The notes under the pieces are model-generated. The model was not told where the DNA came from. It made no database searches and worked only from the letters and a program-made list of their open reading frames with translations. The position numbers were made by a program, and so were the translations under genes. A DNA stretch of 64,000 nucleotides from Planctomycetaceae bacterium (GTDB lineage Bacteria; Planctomycetota; Phycisphaerae; UBA1845; UTPLA1). Positions 17,869 through 33,370 of the stretch are shown in pieces. Each line of letters starts with the position of its first letter. Position 1 is the stretch's first letter. Location: the NCBI GenBank assembly GCA_011525745.1, contig WYBU01000069.1:1-64000 (forward strand), in the 5' to 3' direction.

Positions 17869-19239
17869 ATGATCCGATTGGCGCCAGGCAACCTGCGAAT
17901 TCCGCGGTTCGAGCGGCCGGTCTATGTCGTCGCCGGCGGCCTGACCGACTATCGCAAACAATACCCCGAAAAAAACACCTGCCAGCTCTGTACCGAAGCG
18001 CTGCGCATGGCCGTCGAGGAGAACGACCTCAAGGTCGATCCGGAAGAGTTCCGCCGCAGCGTCAACTGGTGCGTCTATTCGCAGTTCGCGGACCACTTCG
18101 GCGACCAGCTCCTGGCCGCCGCCAAGGTCCACGACTATCTCGGCTTCGATCCGCTCGGCAACATCGAGGTCAAGACCGGCGGCGCGACCGGCGGTTCGGC
18201 GGTGCTGGCTGCCGCTCAGGCGGTCGCTTCGGGTTATGCGAGTTGCGTTCCGGTCGTCGGCTGGGAGCGGATGGACGAGGTGTCGACCAAGGTCGGCAAC
18301 TCCTATATCGCCAGCGCCGCGTGCAAGGATTTCGAAAGCGAGCTGGGCTGGATGTACGCCAGTTACTACGCGCTGATGGCCCAGCGTTATCAGTACGAGA
18401 ACCGGGTGCCGCGCGAGACGCTGGCCCGCATCGCCTGCAAGAATCACCTGTACGCCTGCTACTCCCCCTATTCGCAGAATCCCGGTCGTTACACGATCGA
18501 CGACGTTTTGAAAAACGACCTGGTATCGGACCCGCTGTCGTTCCTCGAATGCTGCGCCATGAGCGTCGGCGCCGCCGTGCTGATCCTGGCCGACGAGGAA
18601 ACCGCATTTCGCATGACCGATCAGCCGGTGCGGCTGACGGCGATCTGCGGCGGGACACACACGCTGCGCACGGCCGACCGGCGCAACATGCCGATCCTGC
18701 TGCTGCCCAATGAGACCGAGGAGACCTATCGCGACTACTTCCACGGGCGTCGCGACGAGTGGCCGGGTTTCAGCTCGTTTCTGGCGGCGCGGATGGCGGC
18801 CTACCTGGCGTATCACATGGCGGGCATCCGCGATCCGGTCGAGGACTTTGACCTGCTCGAGACGCACGACGCCTTCACCATCAGCGACATTCAAACCTAC
18901 GAGGACATCGGCCTGCGGCCTTACGGGCAGGGGCGCGACTTCATCGACTCCGGCGACGCCTATTTCGAGGGTCGCCTGCCGACGAACCTGTCGGGCGGGC
19001 TGATCGGCACGATGCACGCGGTGGGGGCGACGGGCATCTTTCAGTTGGCGGAAGTGCTGTGGCAGTTGCAGGGCAAGTGGGACAAGTTCCACGCCGATCC
19101 GGCGCGCTGGGCGCGATACGGCAAGCGAAAGCCCGACGACTTCCGCAGCCTGCAAGTGAAGAACGCCCGGCGCGGCTGCGCCATTTCGCACGCGGGAACC
19201 GGCAGCCACGTGACGGTGTCGATCATGGAGCGGACGTGA
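17869..19239 (+). CDS. Thiolase-superfamily protein (SCP-x/archaeal type), catalytic Cys apparently missing
   Basis: 456 residues, GGGAG seven bases before the start. The thiolase fold is shown by the order of motifs: VKTGGATGGSAVLAAAQAVA (101-120) leading to VPVVGWERM, ETHDAFTISDIQTYEDIGL (331-349), GLIGTMHAVGATGIFQLAE (377-394, keeping the HxxGATG histidine at 383), and a C-terminal CAISHAGTGSH. In ordinary thiolases the first motif holds the nucleophilic Cys before a small-GG stretch; here Gly105 appears to occupy that place. The next gene encodes the DUF35 partner known from archaeal thiolase complexes and from BbsA of benzoylsuccinyl-CoA thiolase. It is the first gene of a five-gene operon with a 2-oxoacid oxidoreductase. 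The substrate is unknown. Confidence 0.75.
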   Translation: MIRLAPGNLRIPRFERPVYVVAGGLTDYRKQYPEKNTCQLCTEALRMAVEENDLKVDPEEFRRSVNWCVYSQFADHFGDQLLAAAKVHDYLGFDPLGNIEVKTGGATGGSAVLAAAQAVASGYASCVPVVGWERMDEVSTKVGNSYIASAACKDFESELGWMYASYYALMAQRYQYENRVPRETLARIACKNHLYACYSPYSQNPGRYTIDDVLKNDLVSDPLSFLECCAMSVGAAVLILADEETAFRMTDQPVRLTAICGGTHTLRTADRRNMPILLLPNETEETYRDYFHGRRDEWPGFSSFLAARMAAYLAYHMAGIRDPVEDFDLLETHDAFTISDIQTYEDIGLRPYGQGRDFIDSGDAYFEGRLPTNLSGGLIGTMHAVGATGIFQLAEVLWQLQGKWDKFHADPARWARYGKRKPDDFRSLQVKNARRGCAISHAGTGSHVTVSIMERT

Positions 19240-19448
19240 GTCGGCGGAACGGGACCGCGACAGCAGGAGCGTGCCCAGGAATGCTGAACCGAGCCGCGAT
19301 CCTGAACGCGACCAAGGCGGGAGCGTGAAGGGAGCGGCGAGCGAGCACGCGAGACGCCGGCAACCGCTCGTTGAGCGGTTTGCCCTGCAAGGGGTTTGTG
19401 AGAAACGTTCACCGGCCCGTCGCCGCGTTCGGCGACAAGGAGTGACGC

Positions 19449-19925
19449 ATGGCGGTCGAACTGAACGGCACGATTGCCGAGGTCCTGCGGGAAGAGCCGC
19501 TGGTCATCAAGAATCTCAAGACGTGGCATCACAGTCACAGCTACGGCGGCTGGGGCCGCTTTTTCAAGGGGTTGCGCGAGGGACGGCTGCTGGCGACGCG
19601 CTGCACCAATCCGCGCTGCGCCGAAAAGCGCCTGTGGCTGCCGCCGCGCTGCGAATGTCCCGACTGCTGGCATCCGATGGAATGGGTCGATGCGCCGACG
19701 GTCGGCCGCATCTACACGCACACCACCGTGCTCTATCCCGGCGCGCTGTTCCGCGCGGCGGCGCCCTGCCCGCTCATCAGCGTCGAGATGGACGGCGTCT
19801 GCACCAAGCTGATGAGCTATCTGAAAGAGGGCACGCCGCGCATCGGCCTGCCCATCCGCGCCGTCTTCAACCGCGAGCGGCCCACGAACACCATCCTGGA
19901 CCTCGCCTGGGTGCCCCATGCGTGA
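19449..19925 (+). CDS. DUF35 OB-fold, zinc-ribbon acyl-CoA-associated protein
   Basis: 158 residues; AAGGAG precedes the start. Cys52, Cys57, Cys68, Cys70 and Cys73 form a rubredoxin-like zinc ribbon, then the OB-fold begins (DAPTVGRIYTHTTVLYPGA) and ends with a strand containing VFNRERP. This architecture is the DUF35 family, which binds thiolases and, in archaea, bridges thiolase to HMG-CoA synthase by holding the CoA intermediate. Here it follows the thiolase-like gene and overlaps the next gene by eight bases, so it almost certainly works with both. Unusual is the long N terminus (VLREEPLVIKNLKTWHHSHS) before the ribbon. Confidence 0.85.
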   Translation: MAVELNGTIAEVLREEPLVIKNLKTWHHSHSYGGWGRFFKGLREGRLLATRCTNPRCAEKRLWLPPRCECPDCWHPMEWVDAPTVGRIYTHTTVLYPGALFRAAAPCPLISVEMDGVCTKLMSYLKEGTPRIGLPIRAVFNRERPTNTILDLAWVPHA

Positions 19926-21075
19926 GTTCATCACCGGCAATCAGGCCGTCGTGCGCGGGGCACTACGAGCCGGATGCGACTACGTCGCCGGATACCCCAT
20001 CACGCCGGCCAGCTCGATTCTGAGCGATTTTGTCCGCGCTTTCGCCGGCGAACTCGGCATCGTCGTGCAGACCGAGGACGAGATCGCCGCCATCGGCCAG
20101 TGCATCGGCGCGGCCATGGCCGGCGCGCGGGCGCTGACGGCCACGTCGGGGCCGGGACTCAGTCTTTACAGCGAGAACATCGGCCTGGCCCAGATGGGCG
20201 AGACGCCGCTGGTAATCGTCGACTGCCAGCGCATGGGACCGGCAACCGGCGGTGCGACCGCGACGGGCGACGGCGACGTGATCTTTGCGCGGCACGTGAC
20301 GGCCGGCGGCTATCCGCTGCCGGTGCTCGCCGCGACCGACGCGGCCTCGGCGTATCGACTGACCTACGAGGCGTTCAACATTGCCGAGCGGCTGCGGACG
20401 CCGGTGATCGTGCTGTCGTCGAAGGACATCGCGCTGACGCGGCAGACCGTCGACCTGGACGCGATCAGCCTGCCGCCGCGGCTGGCGCGACGCGCGGCGG
20501 CCGACAACGGTCCGTACGCGCCGTATGCGGTTGATCGGCCGGAGTCATCGCCGGCGTTCGCGCCGATCGGCGGACTGCGGCGGGTGCGCTTTACCGGCTC
20601 GATTCACGACGAGCGCGGGCTGCTGACGATCGACCGCGGCAAGATCGAACGGAAGCTGACGCATCTGCGCGACAAGATTGCGATGAACGCCGGGAGCTTG
20701 GAGGACGTGGACGCCGATCTCGACGGCCGCGCGCGCACGCTGATCGTTTCGTACGGCGTGGCGGATGGCGCGGCGCGCGTCGCGGTGCGGCTGTTGCGGC
20801 GCGGCGGAACGCGCGTGTCGCACGTGACGCTCTATTCGCTGTGGCCGATGCCGGTGCGGGCGCTGCGCGACGCCGTCGAGCCGGGCGTCGAGCGGATCGT
20901 CGTACCCGAATTGAACATCGGCCTGTACGCCGACGAGTTGCGGCGCGTGTTTCCGGCGCGGCCGATCGAGTCGATTCAACGATATGACGGCGGCCTGATC
21001 GCTCCGCGAACGATCGTCGATCACGTGGTGCGGGCGGAGTCGGCGAAACGCACGGAGGCGTTTCAACCATGTTGA
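19918..21075 (+). CDS. 2-oxoacid:ferredoxin oxidoreductase, alpha subunit (KorA/PorA-like)
   Basis: 385 residues. The N-terminal pyrimidine-binding domain shows GNQAVVRGALRAGCDYVAGY, the PITPAS motif, EDEIAAIGQCIGAAMAG and TSGPGLSLYSENIGLAQMGE, all typical of KorA/PorA alpha chains. These enzymes interconvert a 2-oxoacid plus CoA with acyl-CoA, CO2 and reduced ferredoxin. KorA proteins normally carry the gamma domain at their N terminus; here it is absent and sits instead behind beta in the partner gene. The C-terminal transketolase-like domain is shortened but present (RARTLIVSYGVADGAARVAV, ERIVVPELNIGLYADELRRV). Start overlaps the DUF35 stop by eight bases, indicating translational coupling. 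Confidence 0.85.
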   Translation: MREFITGNQAVVRGALRAGCDYVAGYPITPASSILSDFVRAFAGELGIVVQTEDEIAAIGQCIGAAMAGARALTATSGPGLSLYSENIGLAQMGETPLVIVDCQRMGPATGGATATGDGDVIFARHVTAGGYPLPVLAATDAASAYRLTYEAFNIAERLRTPVIVLSSKDIALTRQTVDLDAISLPPRLARRAAADNGPYAPYAVDRPESSPAFAPIGGLRRVRFTGSIHDERGLLTIDRGKIERKLTHLRDKIAMNAGSLEDVDADLDGRARTLIVSYGVADGAARVAVRLLRRGGTRVSHVTLYSLWPMPVRALRDAVEPGVERIVVPELNIGLYADELRRVFPARPIESIQRYDGGLIAPRTIVDHVVRAESAKRTEAFQPC

Positions 21076-21103
21076 AAGGATTGAAGGCAAAGTCGTGCGG
21101 GGT

Positions 21104-21176
21104 GGCACGGTCAAGCGACCGCGCGAGAAGGGCGCAATTCGTGGAACGTGTGTTTCACCGCGGTCGCTTGGCCGTG
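21104..21176. repeat. Family B palindrome inside the oxidoreductase operon
   Basis: Arms GGCACGGTCAAGCGACCGCG and CGCGGTCGCTTGGCCGTG flank a variable loop. It lies in the 396-base gap between alpha and beta-gamma genes. The same gap also holds a family A core (21359-21390), an ACGGGCTGCAAGCCCGT palindrome (21403-21420) and a GGTCCGCACTGCGGACC palindrome (about 21437-21453). The gap is unusual for subunits of one enzyme and suggests repeat insertion into an operon. Confidence 0.7.
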
Positions 21177-21471
21177 TTTCCCCGAAACGCCCGCGGCATT
21201 GAGCGTGTTTCGTGATCCGAGCGGCGAAGCGCAAGCGAGCGGGACGGTGTGGCTACGAAGGCGAGTGACAGGAGGTACTCAGCGGGGTATGTGGCGCGCC
21301 GATATGCACGATGCGTTCGAAAGCAAGGGATCGGTTGGCCGGGAATTGTGGCGGGCGGATCCCGCTTGCTTGCGCTGCGCGGCTCTGAAATGCCCTGGTT
21401 CGCACGGGCTGCAAGCCCGTGGCTCGCGGATACGGGGTCCGCACTGCGGACCCTACGGTTGAGATCGCTCG

Positions 21472-22815
21472 ATGAACCTGCTGACCACACCGCGCAATGA
21501 CATGTGCTACTGCCCCGGCTGCTCGCACGGGATGGTGCTGGAGCGCCTCGCCGCAGCCATTGGGGCGACCGGTCGCCGGCCGGAGCAGGTTTGTCTCGTT
21601 TCGGACATCGGCTGCATCGGCACGGCCGATCGGTATTTCGAGTGCCACACGTTCCACGGCCTGCACGGCCGGTCGATCACCTACGCCGAGGGCATCAAGC
21701 GCGTACGGCCGGAGATGACGGTCGTGGTGTTGATCGGCGACGGCGGCTGCGGCATCGGCACGGCGCACCTGGTTCACGCGGCGCGGCGCCGCGCGGGCAT
21801 CAAGGTGATCGTCTGCAACAACTTCAACTTCGGCATGACGGGCGGGCAACACTCGCCCACGACGCCGCCCGCGGGGCACACCAGCACGACGCCCGATGGC
21901 GCGGCCGATTACCCGTTTGACATCTGCGAAACGGTGCGCGTCAACGGCGCCGACTTCGTCGCGCGCGGCAGCGCGCTGGACCCCTCGATCGGCACGCTGA
22001 TCGGCGCGGCGCTCAACGCGCCGGGATTCGCGCTGATCGACGTGTGGGAACTCTGCACCGCCTATTACGTGCCGTCGAACAAGTTGACGCCGCCGCGGCT
22101 GGTCGAGCTGTCGCAGCGTCTGAACATGCCGTTCGGCGTGCTGTTCGATCGCACTTGCGGCCCGAAGTCGCTCCGTGCGGCCGAGGCCGCGCCGGCCGCG
22201 ACGCCATCCCACCTGCCGCACGACCAGGCGCCGCCCGCGGAATCACAAGCAGCCACCGCCGACGTGGTTCTGAGCTGGCCCGAGCGCACCGAAATCTGCG
22301 TCGCCGGCTCGGCCGGGCAGCACATTCGCTCGGCGGCCGGGACCATCGGCAAGCTCGCCGTCGCCGGCGGGCTGTTCGCCGCGCAGCAGGACGATTTTCC
22401 GATCACGGTGCGGCGCGGCCATTCGCTGTCGAATCTCATCATCGCCACGACGCCGATCGAATACGCCGGCCTCGATCGTCCCGGCCTGGTCGTGCTGCTC
22501 AGCCGCGACGGGCTGGAGCGCCTCGGCGGTCTGGCGGAACTGCCGGCCGACTGCGTGGTGGTGGCCGCGTCGGAGTTGGCGCTGCCGCCGGCGCCGGCCC
22601 GCGTGCTGCGCTTCGACGCCGAGCCGCTGGCCCGCGCGGTCGGTCGGGCGTCGGTCGCACTGTCGGCGCTGGCCTTTGGGCTGGTTGAAAAAGAATGGAT
22701 CGACCCGGCGGCGTTGCGCGGAGCCGCGCATCGCTGGGCGGGAGGGGAATACAAAGACGCCGACATCCGCGCCGTGGATGCCGGAACTGCCTTGAGCAGG
22801 GGAGCCGTGACATGA
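21472..22815 (+). CDS. 2-oxoacid:ferredoxin oxidoreductase, beta-gamma fusion
   Basis: 447 residues in two parts. Residues 1-240 are the thiamine-diphosphate beta chain: CYCPGCSHG with Cys12, Cys14 and Cys17, DIGCIGTADRYFECHTFHGL, HGRSITYAEGIK, the Mg/ThDP site GDGGCGIGTAHL (89-100) and NNFNFGMTGGQHSPTTP. After an Ala/Pro-rich linker (235-260), residues 268-440 match the gamma domain: EICVAGSAGQHIRSAAGTIG, then VRRGHSLSNLIIATTPIEY and ALSALAFGLV. In characterised two-gene KorAB enzymes gamma is fused to alpha, so this beta-gamma order is uncommon. No ferredoxin-like delta subunit is encoded here, so an external ferredoxin would accept the electrons. The stop overlaps the next start (ATGA). 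Confidence 0.85.
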   Translation: MNLLTTPRNDMCYCPGCSHGMVLERLAAAIGATGRRPEQVCLVSDIGCIGTADRYFECHTFHGLHGRSITYAEGIKRVRPEMTVVVLIGDGGCGIGTAHLVHAARRRAGIKVIVCNNFNFGMTGGQHSPTTPPAGHTSTTPDGAADYPFDICETVRVNGADFVARGSALDPSIGTLIGAALNAPGFALIDVWELCTAYYVPSNKLTPPRLVELSQRLNMPFGVLFDRTCGPKSLRAAEAAPAATPSHLPHDQAPPAESQAATADVVLSWPERTEICVAGSAGQHIRSAAGTIGKLAVAGGLFAAQQDDFPITVRRGHSLSNLIIATTPIEYAGLDRPGLVVLLSRDGLERLGGLAELPADCVVVAASELALPPAPARVLRFDAEPLARAVGRASVALSALAFGLVEKEWIDPAALRGAAHRWAGGEYKDADIRAVDAGTALSRGAVT

Positions 22816-23435
22816 TTCGCGAATCGAACATCGACCAGGGAATCAATCGCCTGTTGGCGCACTTCGGCCCGCGTGTGGCGGCCCATCCGCCCGCGGCGGC
22901 CCGTGACCTCGCCGACGTCGAGGAACTCGCCGGCCGCCTGCCGCGCGATCTGGTGTTTTTCCTGTCGGCCAGCGACGGCGTGAGCGTGCACCTGGCCGGC
23001 AGCGACTTCGACGCGCGGCTGTGGGGCACGCACGACATGCTGCACGTGCTGCGCGGCGATCTGACGGCCGCGGCGGGGCCGGCCGTGATTCCCGGCTTGC
23101 TGCCGATCCGCGGCGACGTGCGGGGGCGTTACGACTGCCTCGTGCAGGACGAGTGTCCGCTGCACGGCGTGGTGCTGCGGGTCGATGCGTGGTCGGCCGA
23201 GCGGTGCGTGCTGGCGACGGGATTTGGCGTTTATTTCGACGCGTTGACGCGTTATCTGACGCACGCCTTCGACGACGCCGGCCGCCCGCGCCGCGACCGC
23301 CCGCTCGTGGCGTTCGACGCCGACTACGTGACCGAATTCGATGCCGATCTGCGGCGCCTGTCGAACCTGCCCGCGACGCATTCCTGGCTGCACGATCTGG
23401 AGGCGACGCTGTCAAGCGGGGATGACTTCGAATAG
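22812..23435 (+). CDS. SMI1/KNR4 (SUKH)-like protein, last gene of operon
   Basis: 207 residues, translationally coupled to the beta-gamma gene by an ATGA overlap. The region DVEELAGRLPRDLVFFLSAS, then DGVSVHLAG and LWGTHDMLHV, resembles the SMI1/KNR4 fold start (leucine-proline then a hydrophobic helix and a glycine turn). SUKH proteins serve as immunity or regulatory binding modules; in this operon a role in assembling or regulating the enzyme is only inference. The C-terminal half has no feature I recognise. Composition equals the operon, so no sign of recent transfer. Confidence 0.55.
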   Translation: MIRESNIDQGINRLLAHFGPRVAAHPPAAARDLADVEELAGRLPRDLVFFLSASDGVSVHLAGSDFDARLWGTHDMLHVLRGDLTAAAGPAVIPGLLPIRGDVRGRYDCLVQDECPLHGVVLRVDAWSAERCVLATGFGVYFDALTRYLTHAFDDAGRPRRDRPLVAFDADYVTEFDADLRRLSNLPATHSWLHDLEATLSSGDDFE

Positions 23436-33018: not shown

Positions 33019-33370
33019 GGCGACCTCGCTCGGCAGAACGTTGTGGGCATGGCATGTTAACGGATAGGGCAGGGCGCATCTGATCCGAGCCGCAAGCGCC
33101 AGCGCTGCGGTCATTCGCGTGGCACGGGCTTGCAGCCCGTGCGAATCCGAGCCGCGCAGCGTCAGCAAGCGGGATCCGACCGCTACGTACGGAATGAACC
33201 GTCGTCCCACGTTTGCCCGCCCGAAGCCTGACGGCGCGCCGGGCGTCGACATCGCGTACAAAACACGGCGATCGGCTCCCAAGCGCCCGCATCCCGCTCG
33301 CTTACGCTTCGCGGCTCTGAAGTAACCCGGCGCTTGCGCTTAGGGCTCGGATCATCTTGTTAGGGTCCGC
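33019..33370. repeat. Repeat-filled intergenic region
   Basis: 33122-33142 is the palindrome GCACGGGCTTGCAGCCCGTGC. An inverted family A core lies at 33150-33180 and a direct one at 33291-33322, followed by a related GGCGCTTGCGCTTAGGGCTC unit (from 33330). Together they almost fill the gap. No gene supported. Confidence 0.65.

What the first reader, a model, noticed from the sequence alone, without database searches (positions are those of the whole stretch)
17869..23435. Operon joining a Cys-less thiolase, DUF35 and a 2-oxoacid:ferredoxin oxidoreductase
Thiolase plus DUF35 is a known acyl-CoA Claisen pair, and 2-oxoacid oxidoreductases make or use acyl-CoA. Having both in one translationally coupled set suggests direct handover of an acyl-CoA: decarboxylation of a 2-oxoacid followed by condensation, or thiolysis followed by reductive carboxylation. 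I cannot assign it to a named pathway. The thiolase seems to lack its nucleophile (Gly105 in KTGGATGGSA), so chemistry may differ.
Basis: partly seen in the sequence, partly recalled or inferred. Interest (0 to 1): 0.72.

Follow-up and report, generated by a model that had tools for sequence, protein, structure and literature searches.

The report
Cys-less thiolase-like enzyme with 2-oxoacid oxidoreductase
A planctomycete gene cluster pairs a widespread, uncharacterised thiolase look-alike that has lost its catalytic cysteines, and its DUF35 partner, with a 2-oxoacid:ferredoxin oxidoreductase; the enzyme probably makes or breaks carbon-carbon bonds of acyl-CoAs by aldol rather than thiolase chemistry, but its substrate is unknown.

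Summary
Only two of the four junctions overlap; gaps of 209 and 396 bp break the 'coupled set'.

The Cys-to-Gly change is no quirk: GGATGG is invariant in all homologues that cover it (92 of 93), from Phycisphaerae, CPR bacteria, Myxococcota, Marinimicrobia, Thermoplasmatota and Lokiarchaeota. The second SCP2-thiolase cysteine (HDCF) is Ala335; His333, His383 and a family-specific His441 are invariant. DUF35 follows in 91 of 93 loci. The oxidoreductase is optional: close by in 6 of 38 thiolase-positive relatives, but gained repeatedly, with different oxidoreductase types, and absent from five CPR genomes that keep the pair. A small cupin bridges the two modules.

Best reading: a DUF35-dependent acyl-CoA aldolase/retro-aldolase, working like Ltp2/Sal but with other catalytic residues, in branched-chain or ketone acyl-CoA metabolism. 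A role replacing HMG-CoA lyase in leucine breakdown, and a mevalonate role in the CPR carriers, were tested and rejected. Direct acyl-CoA handover remains unshown. New variant of a known kind; function unproven.

The parts
17869..19239 (+). Thiolase-fold protein without the nucleophilic Cys (456 aa; nearest NCBIfam model PRK06365/NF004982, function not assigned)
   Evidence: AF2 pLDDT 88.4, pTM 0.93; Z 50.9 to 6esq
18172..18201 (+). Nucleophile loop KTGGATGGSA (residues 102-111; Gly105 in place of Cys)
   Evidence: G104 G105 A106 T107 G108 G109 in every homologue covering it, 92 of 93; aligned to EAACASG of 6esq/7yvy
18865..18876 (+). HDAF motif (His333-Phe336), counterpart of HDCF in SCP2 thiolases and of YDHF/YDCY in Ltp2/Sal
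   Evidence: H333, D334, A335 invariant; alignment; motif comparison PMC12329534
19012..19026 (+). MHAVG loop with His383 (counterpart of GHP/GHA)
   Evidence: H383 invariant in 93 of 93
19186..19197 (+). SHAG loop (Ser440-Gly443); His441 is family-specific (Ile in 7yvy at that place)
   Evidence: S440, H441, A442, G443 invariant
19449..19925 (+). DUF35 (zinc ribbon + OB fold, PF01796) partner; Cys52, 57, 70, 73 likely zinc ligands
   Evidence: follows the thiolase in 91 of 93 loci
19918..21075 (+). KorA: 2-oxoacid:ferredoxin oxidoreductase alpha subunit (385 aa)
   Evidence: start overlaps DUF35 by 8 bp
21076..21471 (.). 396-bp non-coding gap with two imperfect inverted repeats (21098-21184, 21216-21388)
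21472..22815 (+). KorB beta subunit (about residues 1-205) fused to a divergent gamma/POR domain (282-419)
   Evidence: cluster Cys C14, C17, C48, C195 invariant in 8 homologues
22812..23435 (+). SUKH-1 (SMI1/KNR4-type) protein, 207 aa; directly follows KorB in most relatives
   Evidence: PF09346 hits in 6 of 8 relatives; Knr4 fold matches

Best explanation
The thiolase-like protein and DUF35 form a heteromeric acyl-CoA carbon-carbon lyase/synthase of the aldol (retro-aldol) type. Proposed mechanism (inferred): DUF35 helps hold the CoA ester; His333 (HDAF) with a water stabilises the thioester enolate; His383, or the family-specific His441, is the acid/base on the beta-hydroxyl; Gly105 leaves room for the beta-carbon substituent where Cys-thiolases form the acyl-enzyme. 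In the cleavage direction a (probably branched) 3-hydroxyacyl-CoA gives a short acyl-CoA plus a ketone, aldehyde or 2-oxoacid. KorA/KorB-gamma is an accessory 2-oxoacid:ferredoxin oxidoreductase that either makes the acyl-CoA entering this step or oxidises a 2-oxoacid leaving it. Shown: gene content, invariance of the altered active-site loops, near-universal DUF35 linkage, repeated oxidoreductase linkage, neighbourhood of acyl-CoA enzymes. Inferred: reaction type, direction, substrate, physical complex.
For: (1) The measured DUF35-bound thiolase-fold enzymes that lack the nucleophile, Ltp2 and Sal, are retro-aldolases, and Sal also has Gly at the nucleophile place (PMC12329534). (2) Active-site loops GGATGG, HDAxTxSDxQTYED, MHAVGATG and SHAGxG are near-invariant across phyla, which argues for catalysis. 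(3) Best structural relatives are DUF35-associated thiolases (6esq Z 50.9, BbsB 47.1), with Ltp2 (43.1) and Sal (42.0) also aligned over most of the chain. (4) Neighbours are acyl-CoA enzymes: acyl-CoA dehydrogenase, enoyl-CoA hydratase, 3-hydroxyacyl-CoA dehydrogenase, IcmF/MCM-type mutases, acetoacetyl-CoA-ligase-like, BKACE, methylcitrate-cycle genes. A CPR locus (L062) has thiolase - MaoC-like hydratase - this gene - DUF35, the same trio of parts as ChsH1-ChsH2-Ltp2 and Shy-Sal (MaoC named by eye). (5) Oxidoreductase linkage: 6 of 38 vs 0.2 expected, about 7 changes on the tree; a cupin of one clade is found only in thiolase-positive relatives (10 of 10 above 100 bits) and lies beside the pair, beside KorA, or both.
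Against: The Tyr base of Ltp2/Sal (YDHF/YDCY) is His here, as in true thiolases, and Sal's Cys acid is Ala, so the known aldolase residues are not conserved. No enzyme of this subfamily has been assayed to my knowledge. The hydratase-aldolase trio is seen in one locus, by eye. In most Phycisphaerae no pathway gene lies next to the pair.
Confidence: 0.42

Rival explanations
1. A decarboxylase: with both cysteines gone but two histidines kept, the enzyme decarboxylates a malonyl-type acyl-CoA (for example methylmalonyl-CoA), as Cys-less ketosynthase domains do (own knowledge).
For: His333/His383 pair retained, Cys absent; TbSLP has weak malonyl-CoA decarboxylase activity (PMC12329534); MCM/IcmF and methylcitrate genes in some neighbourhoods.
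Against: Sal does not decarboxylate malonyl-CoA and the TbSLP rate is very low; does not explain the near-universal DUF35 or the hydratase neighbours.
Confidence: 0.15
2. A non-covalent Claisen/thiolase-type enzyme: an acyl-CoA made by the oxidoreductase is condensed with a second acyl-CoA (or a 3-oxoacyl-CoA is cleaved) without an acyl-enzyme.
For: Thiolase + DUF35 pairs of known function include Claisen enzymes (6esq complex, BbsAB); nearest fold is the archaeal acetoacetyl-CoA thiolase.
Against: Both SCP2-thiolase cysteines are invariantly replaced (Gly105, Ala335); I know of no Cys-free thiolase with Claisen activity.
Confidence: 0.15
3. Replacement of HMG-CoA lyase (retro-aldol of HMG-CoA) in leucine breakdown, the oxidoreductase making isovaleryl-CoA.
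For: In G384 (L156) a methylcrotonyl-CoA-carboxylase-like pair and a methylglutaconyl-type hydratase lie next to the pair; similar hydratases near it in L016 and L032.
Against: All ten thiolase-positive relatives with the close carboxylase homologue also have a canonical HMG-CoA lyase, and 28 thiolase-positive relatives lack that close homologue.
Confidence: 0.04
4. A non-catalytic pseudo-thiolase that only scaffolds or regulates partner enzymes.
For: Loss of the known catalytic residues.
Against: Altered active-site loops are among the most conserved parts of the protein over several phyla; it is kept in 0.8-1.4 Mb CPR genomes.
Confidence: 0.08
5. The oxidoreductase is a chance neighbour without functional link; the pair acts alone. 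(Independent of the reaction-type question above.)
For: Most pairs have no oxidoreductase nearby; five CPR genomes have none; four relatives have the KorB type without the thiolase.
Against: 6 of 38 against 0.2 expected, different oxidoreductase types, both gene orders, and the bridging cupin.
Confidence: 0.25

Closest known systems
Ltp2-ChsH2(DUF35) and Sal-Shy(DUF35) steroid side-chain aldolases (6ok1, 9myr)
   Same: Thiolase fold, DUF35 partner, no nucleophilic Cys (Gly in Sal as here), acyl-CoA context
   Different: Catalytic Tyr (YDHF/YDCY) is His (HDAF); Sal's Cys304 is Ala; DUF35 not fused to a MaoC hydratase; no steroid pathway seen; 20-24% identity in the structural alignment
Archaeal acetoacetyl-CoA thiolase/DUF35/HMG-CoA synthase complex (6esq)
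   Same: Closest fold (Z 50.9), DUF35 gene adjacent
   Different: 6esq has Cys nucleophile and HDCF; no HMG-CoA synthase recognised at the loci read here
Benzoylsuccinyl-CoA thiolase BbsB-BbsA (7pxp)
   Same: Thiolase + DUF35 heteromer, Z 47.1
   Different: Thiolysis of benzoylsuccinyl-CoA; no benzylsuccinate genes recognised in the neighbourhoods read
ST0096 of Sulfolobus tokodaii (4yzo)
   Same: Cys-less (NTSGSGG) thiolase-like protein of unknown function, Z 50.0
   Different: HDMA instead of HDAF; about 30% identity
Acetone-degradation clusters of Desulfotomaculum (PMC8084838)
   Same: One induced cluster holds an acetyl-CoA-acetyltransferase-annotated gene numbered next to a DUF35 gene, 2-oxoacid oxidoreductases and an MCM-type mutase
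   Different: Cys status of that acetyltransferase not known to me; no oxidoreductase-pair adjacency of the kind seen here is described
KorAB 2-oxoglutarate/2-oxoacid:ferredoxin oxidoreductases (8ys5, 1yd7)
   Same: TPP and [4Fe-4S] motifs of alpha and beta subunits
   Different: Gamma domain fused to the beta C-terminus and very divergent; scores below every equivalog cut-off

Membership tests
Thiolase (EC 2.3.1.9/16/176) | Nucleophilic Cys in the CxS loop | tested here: not met
   Gly105, invariant in the 92 of 93 homologues that cover it
Thiolase (EC 2.3.1.9/16/176) | Acid/base Cys (HDCF in SCP2 type) | tested here: not met
   Ala335 invariant
Thiolase (EC 2.3.1.9/16/176) | Thiolase fold and GHx histidine | tested here: met
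   AF2 model, Z up to 50.9; His383 invariant
Ltp2/Sal aldolases | No nucleophilic Cys; thiolase fold; DUF35 partner | tested here: met
Ltp2/Sal aldolases | Catalytic Tyr base in YD[HC][FY] | tested here: not met
   H333-D-A-F against YDHF/YDCY (PMC12329534)
Ltp2/Sal aldolases | Retro-aldol activity on a 3-hydroxyacyl-CoA | not testable with these tools
   Needs an enzyme assay
NCBIfam PRK06365 (NF004982) | Score above curated cut-off 695 bits | tested here: not met
   543.7 bits, full-length; best model for the window protein and matched by all 58 members
2-oxoacid:ferredoxin oxidoreductase (KorAB type) | POR_N/PFOR_II alpha and TPP beta with four cluster Cys | tested here: met
2-oxoacid:ferredoxin oxidoreductase (KorAB type) | Gamma domain present | tested here: inconclusive
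   Residues 282-419 of KorB hit POR at 25.0 bits, cut-off 27.4
HMG-CoA lyase function (replacement) | Present where leucine-pathway carboxylase is present but HMGL absent | tested here: not met
   HMGL present in all ten such genomes
SUKH-1 (SMI1/KNR4), 207-aa protein | PF09346 match and Knr4-like fold | tested here: met
   6 of 8 family members match PF09346 (the window member itself does not); Knr4 is top fold hit of the window member's model

The most novel reading that the evidence does not exclude
A new class of acyl-CoA aldolase with a Cys-free, multi-histidine centre (H333/H383/H441), spread across bacteria, CPR and Asgard archaea, whose retro-aldol product (a 2-oxoacid) or acyl-CoA substrate is passed to or from a ferredoxin-linked 2-oxoacid oxidoreductase in the same cluster: an oxygen-independent C-C cleavage route that recovers low-potential electrons.
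Probability: 0.15. Interest if true: 0.75.

Novelty: new variant of a known kind. Interest (0 to 1): 0.55.

Why it matters
The nearest database model calls these proteins only 'thiolase domain-containing', and genome-based metabolic models of uncultured lineages (planctomycetes, Asgard archaea, CPR) can therefore count them as beta-oxidation or acetyl-CoA acetyltransferase thiolases. The conserved loss of both catalytic cysteines says that reading is probably wrong for a family spread over bacteria and archaea. If it is an aldolase, it would extend the steroid aldolase precedent to general acyl-CoA metabolism and, in some genomes, tie C-C cleavage to ferredoxin reduction; the test is an assay of two small proteins.

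Tried and rejected
HMG-CoA lyase replacement in leucine degradation: rejected by presence of canonical HMGL in all ten relatives that have the pair and the close carboxylase homologue. Mevalonate-pathway role in CPR (suggested by a polyprenyl synthetase next to L056): no HMG-CoA reductase in any of the five CPR genomes. Oxidoreductase as obligate partner: no POR_N in the same five genomes. Alternative nucleophile Cys126/Cys437: not conserved. Phylum-wide co-occurrence of the KorB type with the thiolase: none of the nine other KorB-positive genomes was thiolase-positive; within the order 9 both, 29 thiolase only, 4 KorB only, 59 neither, one-sided Fisher p about 0.015. Pfam gave nothing for the window's 207-aa protein alone; relatives and fold identified it. 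The NF005892 (Ltp2-type lipid-transfer) search was negative in the own genome. Paper searches found no description of this Cys-less subfamily or of its oxidoreductase linkage; the library lacks most subscription journals.
Full report
What is there. The window lies in a 5.4-Mb assembly that is a planctomycete, judged by its relatives, which are mostly Phycisphaerae MAGs. Genes on the + strand: a 456-aa thiolase-fold protein (17869-19239), a 158-aa DUF35 protein (19449-19925), KorA (19918-21075), a 447-aa KorB with a C-terminal divergent gamma domain (21472-22815) and a 207-aa protein (22812-23435). DUF35/KorA overlap by 8 bp and KorB/207-aa by 4 bp. The thiolase-DUF35 gap is 209 bp and the KorA-KorB gap 396 bp, the latter holding imperfect inverted repeats. 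In relatives the same genes are tighter, for example THI-DUF35-cupin-KorA-KorB-SUKH in G301 (L130) and G308 (L129). Downstream follows an unrelated beta-galactosidase gene on the other strand.

The missing cysteine. Aligned to solved thiolases, KTGGATGGSA falls on the CxS loop and Gly105 on the nucleophile. In 93 sequences G104-G109 is GGATGG in every sequence covering it. The HDCF motif of SCP2-type thiolases is HDAF, so the second catalytic Cys is Ala335, also invariant. His333, His383, Ser440 and His441 are invariant; by alignment to 7yvy, His441 replaces Ile in 'QNIGGTG', so it looks peculiar to this family. Cys229 is invariant but Cys is also found there in ordinary thiolases of the DUF35/SCP2 type, outside the active loops.

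Family and fold. Best NCBIfam model is PRK06365 ('thiolase domain-containing protein', no function), matched by all 58 aligned members, the window protein below its cut-off. A well-scored AF2 model (pLDDT 88.4, pTM 0.93) is closest to the archaeal acetoacetyl-CoA thiolase of the DUF35/HMGS complex (6esq, Z 50.9), 7yvy, ST0096 (4yzo), BbsB, SCP2 thiolases, PhlC, then Ltp2 (43.1) and Sal (42.0). Homologues of 53-88% identity occur in Phycisphaerae, Acidobacteriota, Methylomirabilota, Poribacteria, Lentisphaerota, five CPR lineages, Myxococcota, Marinimicrobia, Thermoplasmatota and Lokiarchaeota. A DUF35 gene follows on the same strand in 91 of 93 loci (the window's own included), sometimes with a foreign gene in between.

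How tied is the oxidoreductase? Among 101 relatives, 38 have the thiolase and 13 a close KorB-gamma (E below 1e-120); both in 9, one-sided Fisher p 0.015. The KorAB-SUKH module lies beside the pair in the window's genome, G301, G308 and G322; in G322 the order is KorA-KorB-SUKH-THI-DUF35. A different oxidoreductase (PorA, PorB and a gamma domain fused to a pyridine-nucleotide flavoprotein) lies beside the pair in G310 (L146) and G376 (L149). In the Lentisphaeria locus L061 the order is THI-DUF35-acyl-CoA dehydrogenase-3-hydroxyacyl-CoA dehydrogenase-Cys-containing thiolase-ferredoxin/POR_N protein, next to methylcitrate-cycle genes named by eye. Thiolase-positive relatives carry about 3.3 POR_N genes each, so 0.2 adjacencies within 3 kb are expected in 38 genomes; six are seen (Poisson p about 7e-8, ignoring shared descent). 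On the thiolase tree seven linked rows need seven changes (one of the seven, L038, is a weak case at 4.8 kb in another operon). Loss in some lineages cannot be told from gain, but several independent events are likely.

A third partner. A small cupin sits between the pair and KorA in G301 and G308, after the pair without KorAB in G310, G345, G362, G376 and G380, and before KorA away from the pair in G348 (coordinates compared). All ten relatives with a cupin match above 100 bits are thiolase-positive (base rate 38 of 101). The window's genome has no match. The 207-aa protein is SUKH-1/SMI1-KNR4 (PF09346 in 6 of 8 members, Knr4 as top fold hit).

But it is optional. Twenty-nine of 38 thiolase-positive relatives lack this KorB type. 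None of five CPR genomes with the pair has a POR_N gene, nor does that of the Methylomirabilota locus L054. These genomes are incomplete to an unknown degree, but five of five is telling. So whatever the pair does, it does not need the oxidoreductase, and 'direct handover' is at most a local elaboration.

Likely chemistry. The measured DUF35-associated thiolase-fold enzymes without the nucleophile are the steroid aldolases Ltp2 and Sal; Sal also has Gly there (PMC12329534). Their Tyr base is absent here and His is kept, so membership fails while the working analogy stands. Neighbours are those of acyl-CoA metabolism: acyl-CoA dehydrogenases, crotonase-type hydratases, 3-hydroxyacyl-CoA dehydrogenase, IcmF or MCM, acetoacetyl-CoA-ligase-like proteins, BKACE in Lokiarchaeota, and in the CPR locus L062 a MaoC-like hydratase between a classical thiolase and the pair. 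The hydratase-DUF35-aldolase trio mirrors ChsH1-ChsH2-Ltp2 and Shy-Sal. I therefore favour aldol/retro-aldol chemistry on a branched 3-hydroxyacyl-CoA. Decarboxylation and non-covalent Claisen chemistry remain open.

Tested pathways. G384 has a methylcrotonyl-CoA-carboxylase-like pair and a methylglutaconyl-type hydratase beside the thiolase, which suggested an HMG-CoA lyase substitute. The distribution rejects this: canonical HMG-CoA lyase is present in all ten thiolase-positive relatives with the close carboxylase homologue (G301, G308, G310, G345, G348, G362, G372, G380, G384, G385). A mevalonate role in the CPR carriers is rejected by absence of HMG-CoA reductase. A published acetone-degradation cluster in Desulfotomaculum has an acetyltransferase-annotated gene numbered next to a DUF35 gene, plus 2-oxoacid oxidoreductases and an MCM-type mutase (PMC8084838), which makes ketone metabolism a lead, not a result.

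Verdict. Linkage statistics ignore the fragmentation of the assemblies; co-occurrence is modest; and the reaction type rests on analogy.

Noticed in passing
L083:10522-11688, L093:11848-13143, L077:11184-12434: Lokiarchaeota carry, next to the family member, a second Cys-less thiolase-like protein with TGGTTGG, paired with another thiolase-like protein and further DUF35 genes, plus a BKACE gene: possibly a heteromeric relative.
   Followed up: partly
L056, L057, L059, L062, L063: The pair is present in CPR (Patescibacteria) genomes of 0.8-1.4 Mb at 67-73% identity to the planctomycete protein and the five form one group on the tree: probably one ancient transfer into organisms with little acyl-CoA metabolism.
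   Followed up: partly
window 21472-22815: KorB with a C-terminal gamma domain: an alpha / beta-gamma arrangement that I have not met before (own knowledge; not searched).
   Followed up: no
L054:7772-11239: IcmF-type fused mutase (B12-binding, MeaB, mutase domains) directly after thiolase-DUF35 in a Methylomirabilota MAG; its ORF overlaps the DUF35 ORF.
   Followed up: no
L149:7126-7599, L036:2376-2849 (also ORF L033:6788-7966): A gene for a RecF/SMC-like ATPase (named by eye) is inserted between the thiolase and DUF35 genes in several Phycisphaerae; other genomes have other inserts (L155, L153).
   Followed up: no
window 21406-21425 and 33119-33138: GGGCTGCAAGCCCGTGGCTC-type palindromic element occurs twice (0 and 2 mismatches; expected 0.01), one copy in the KorA-KorB gap.
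   Followed up: no
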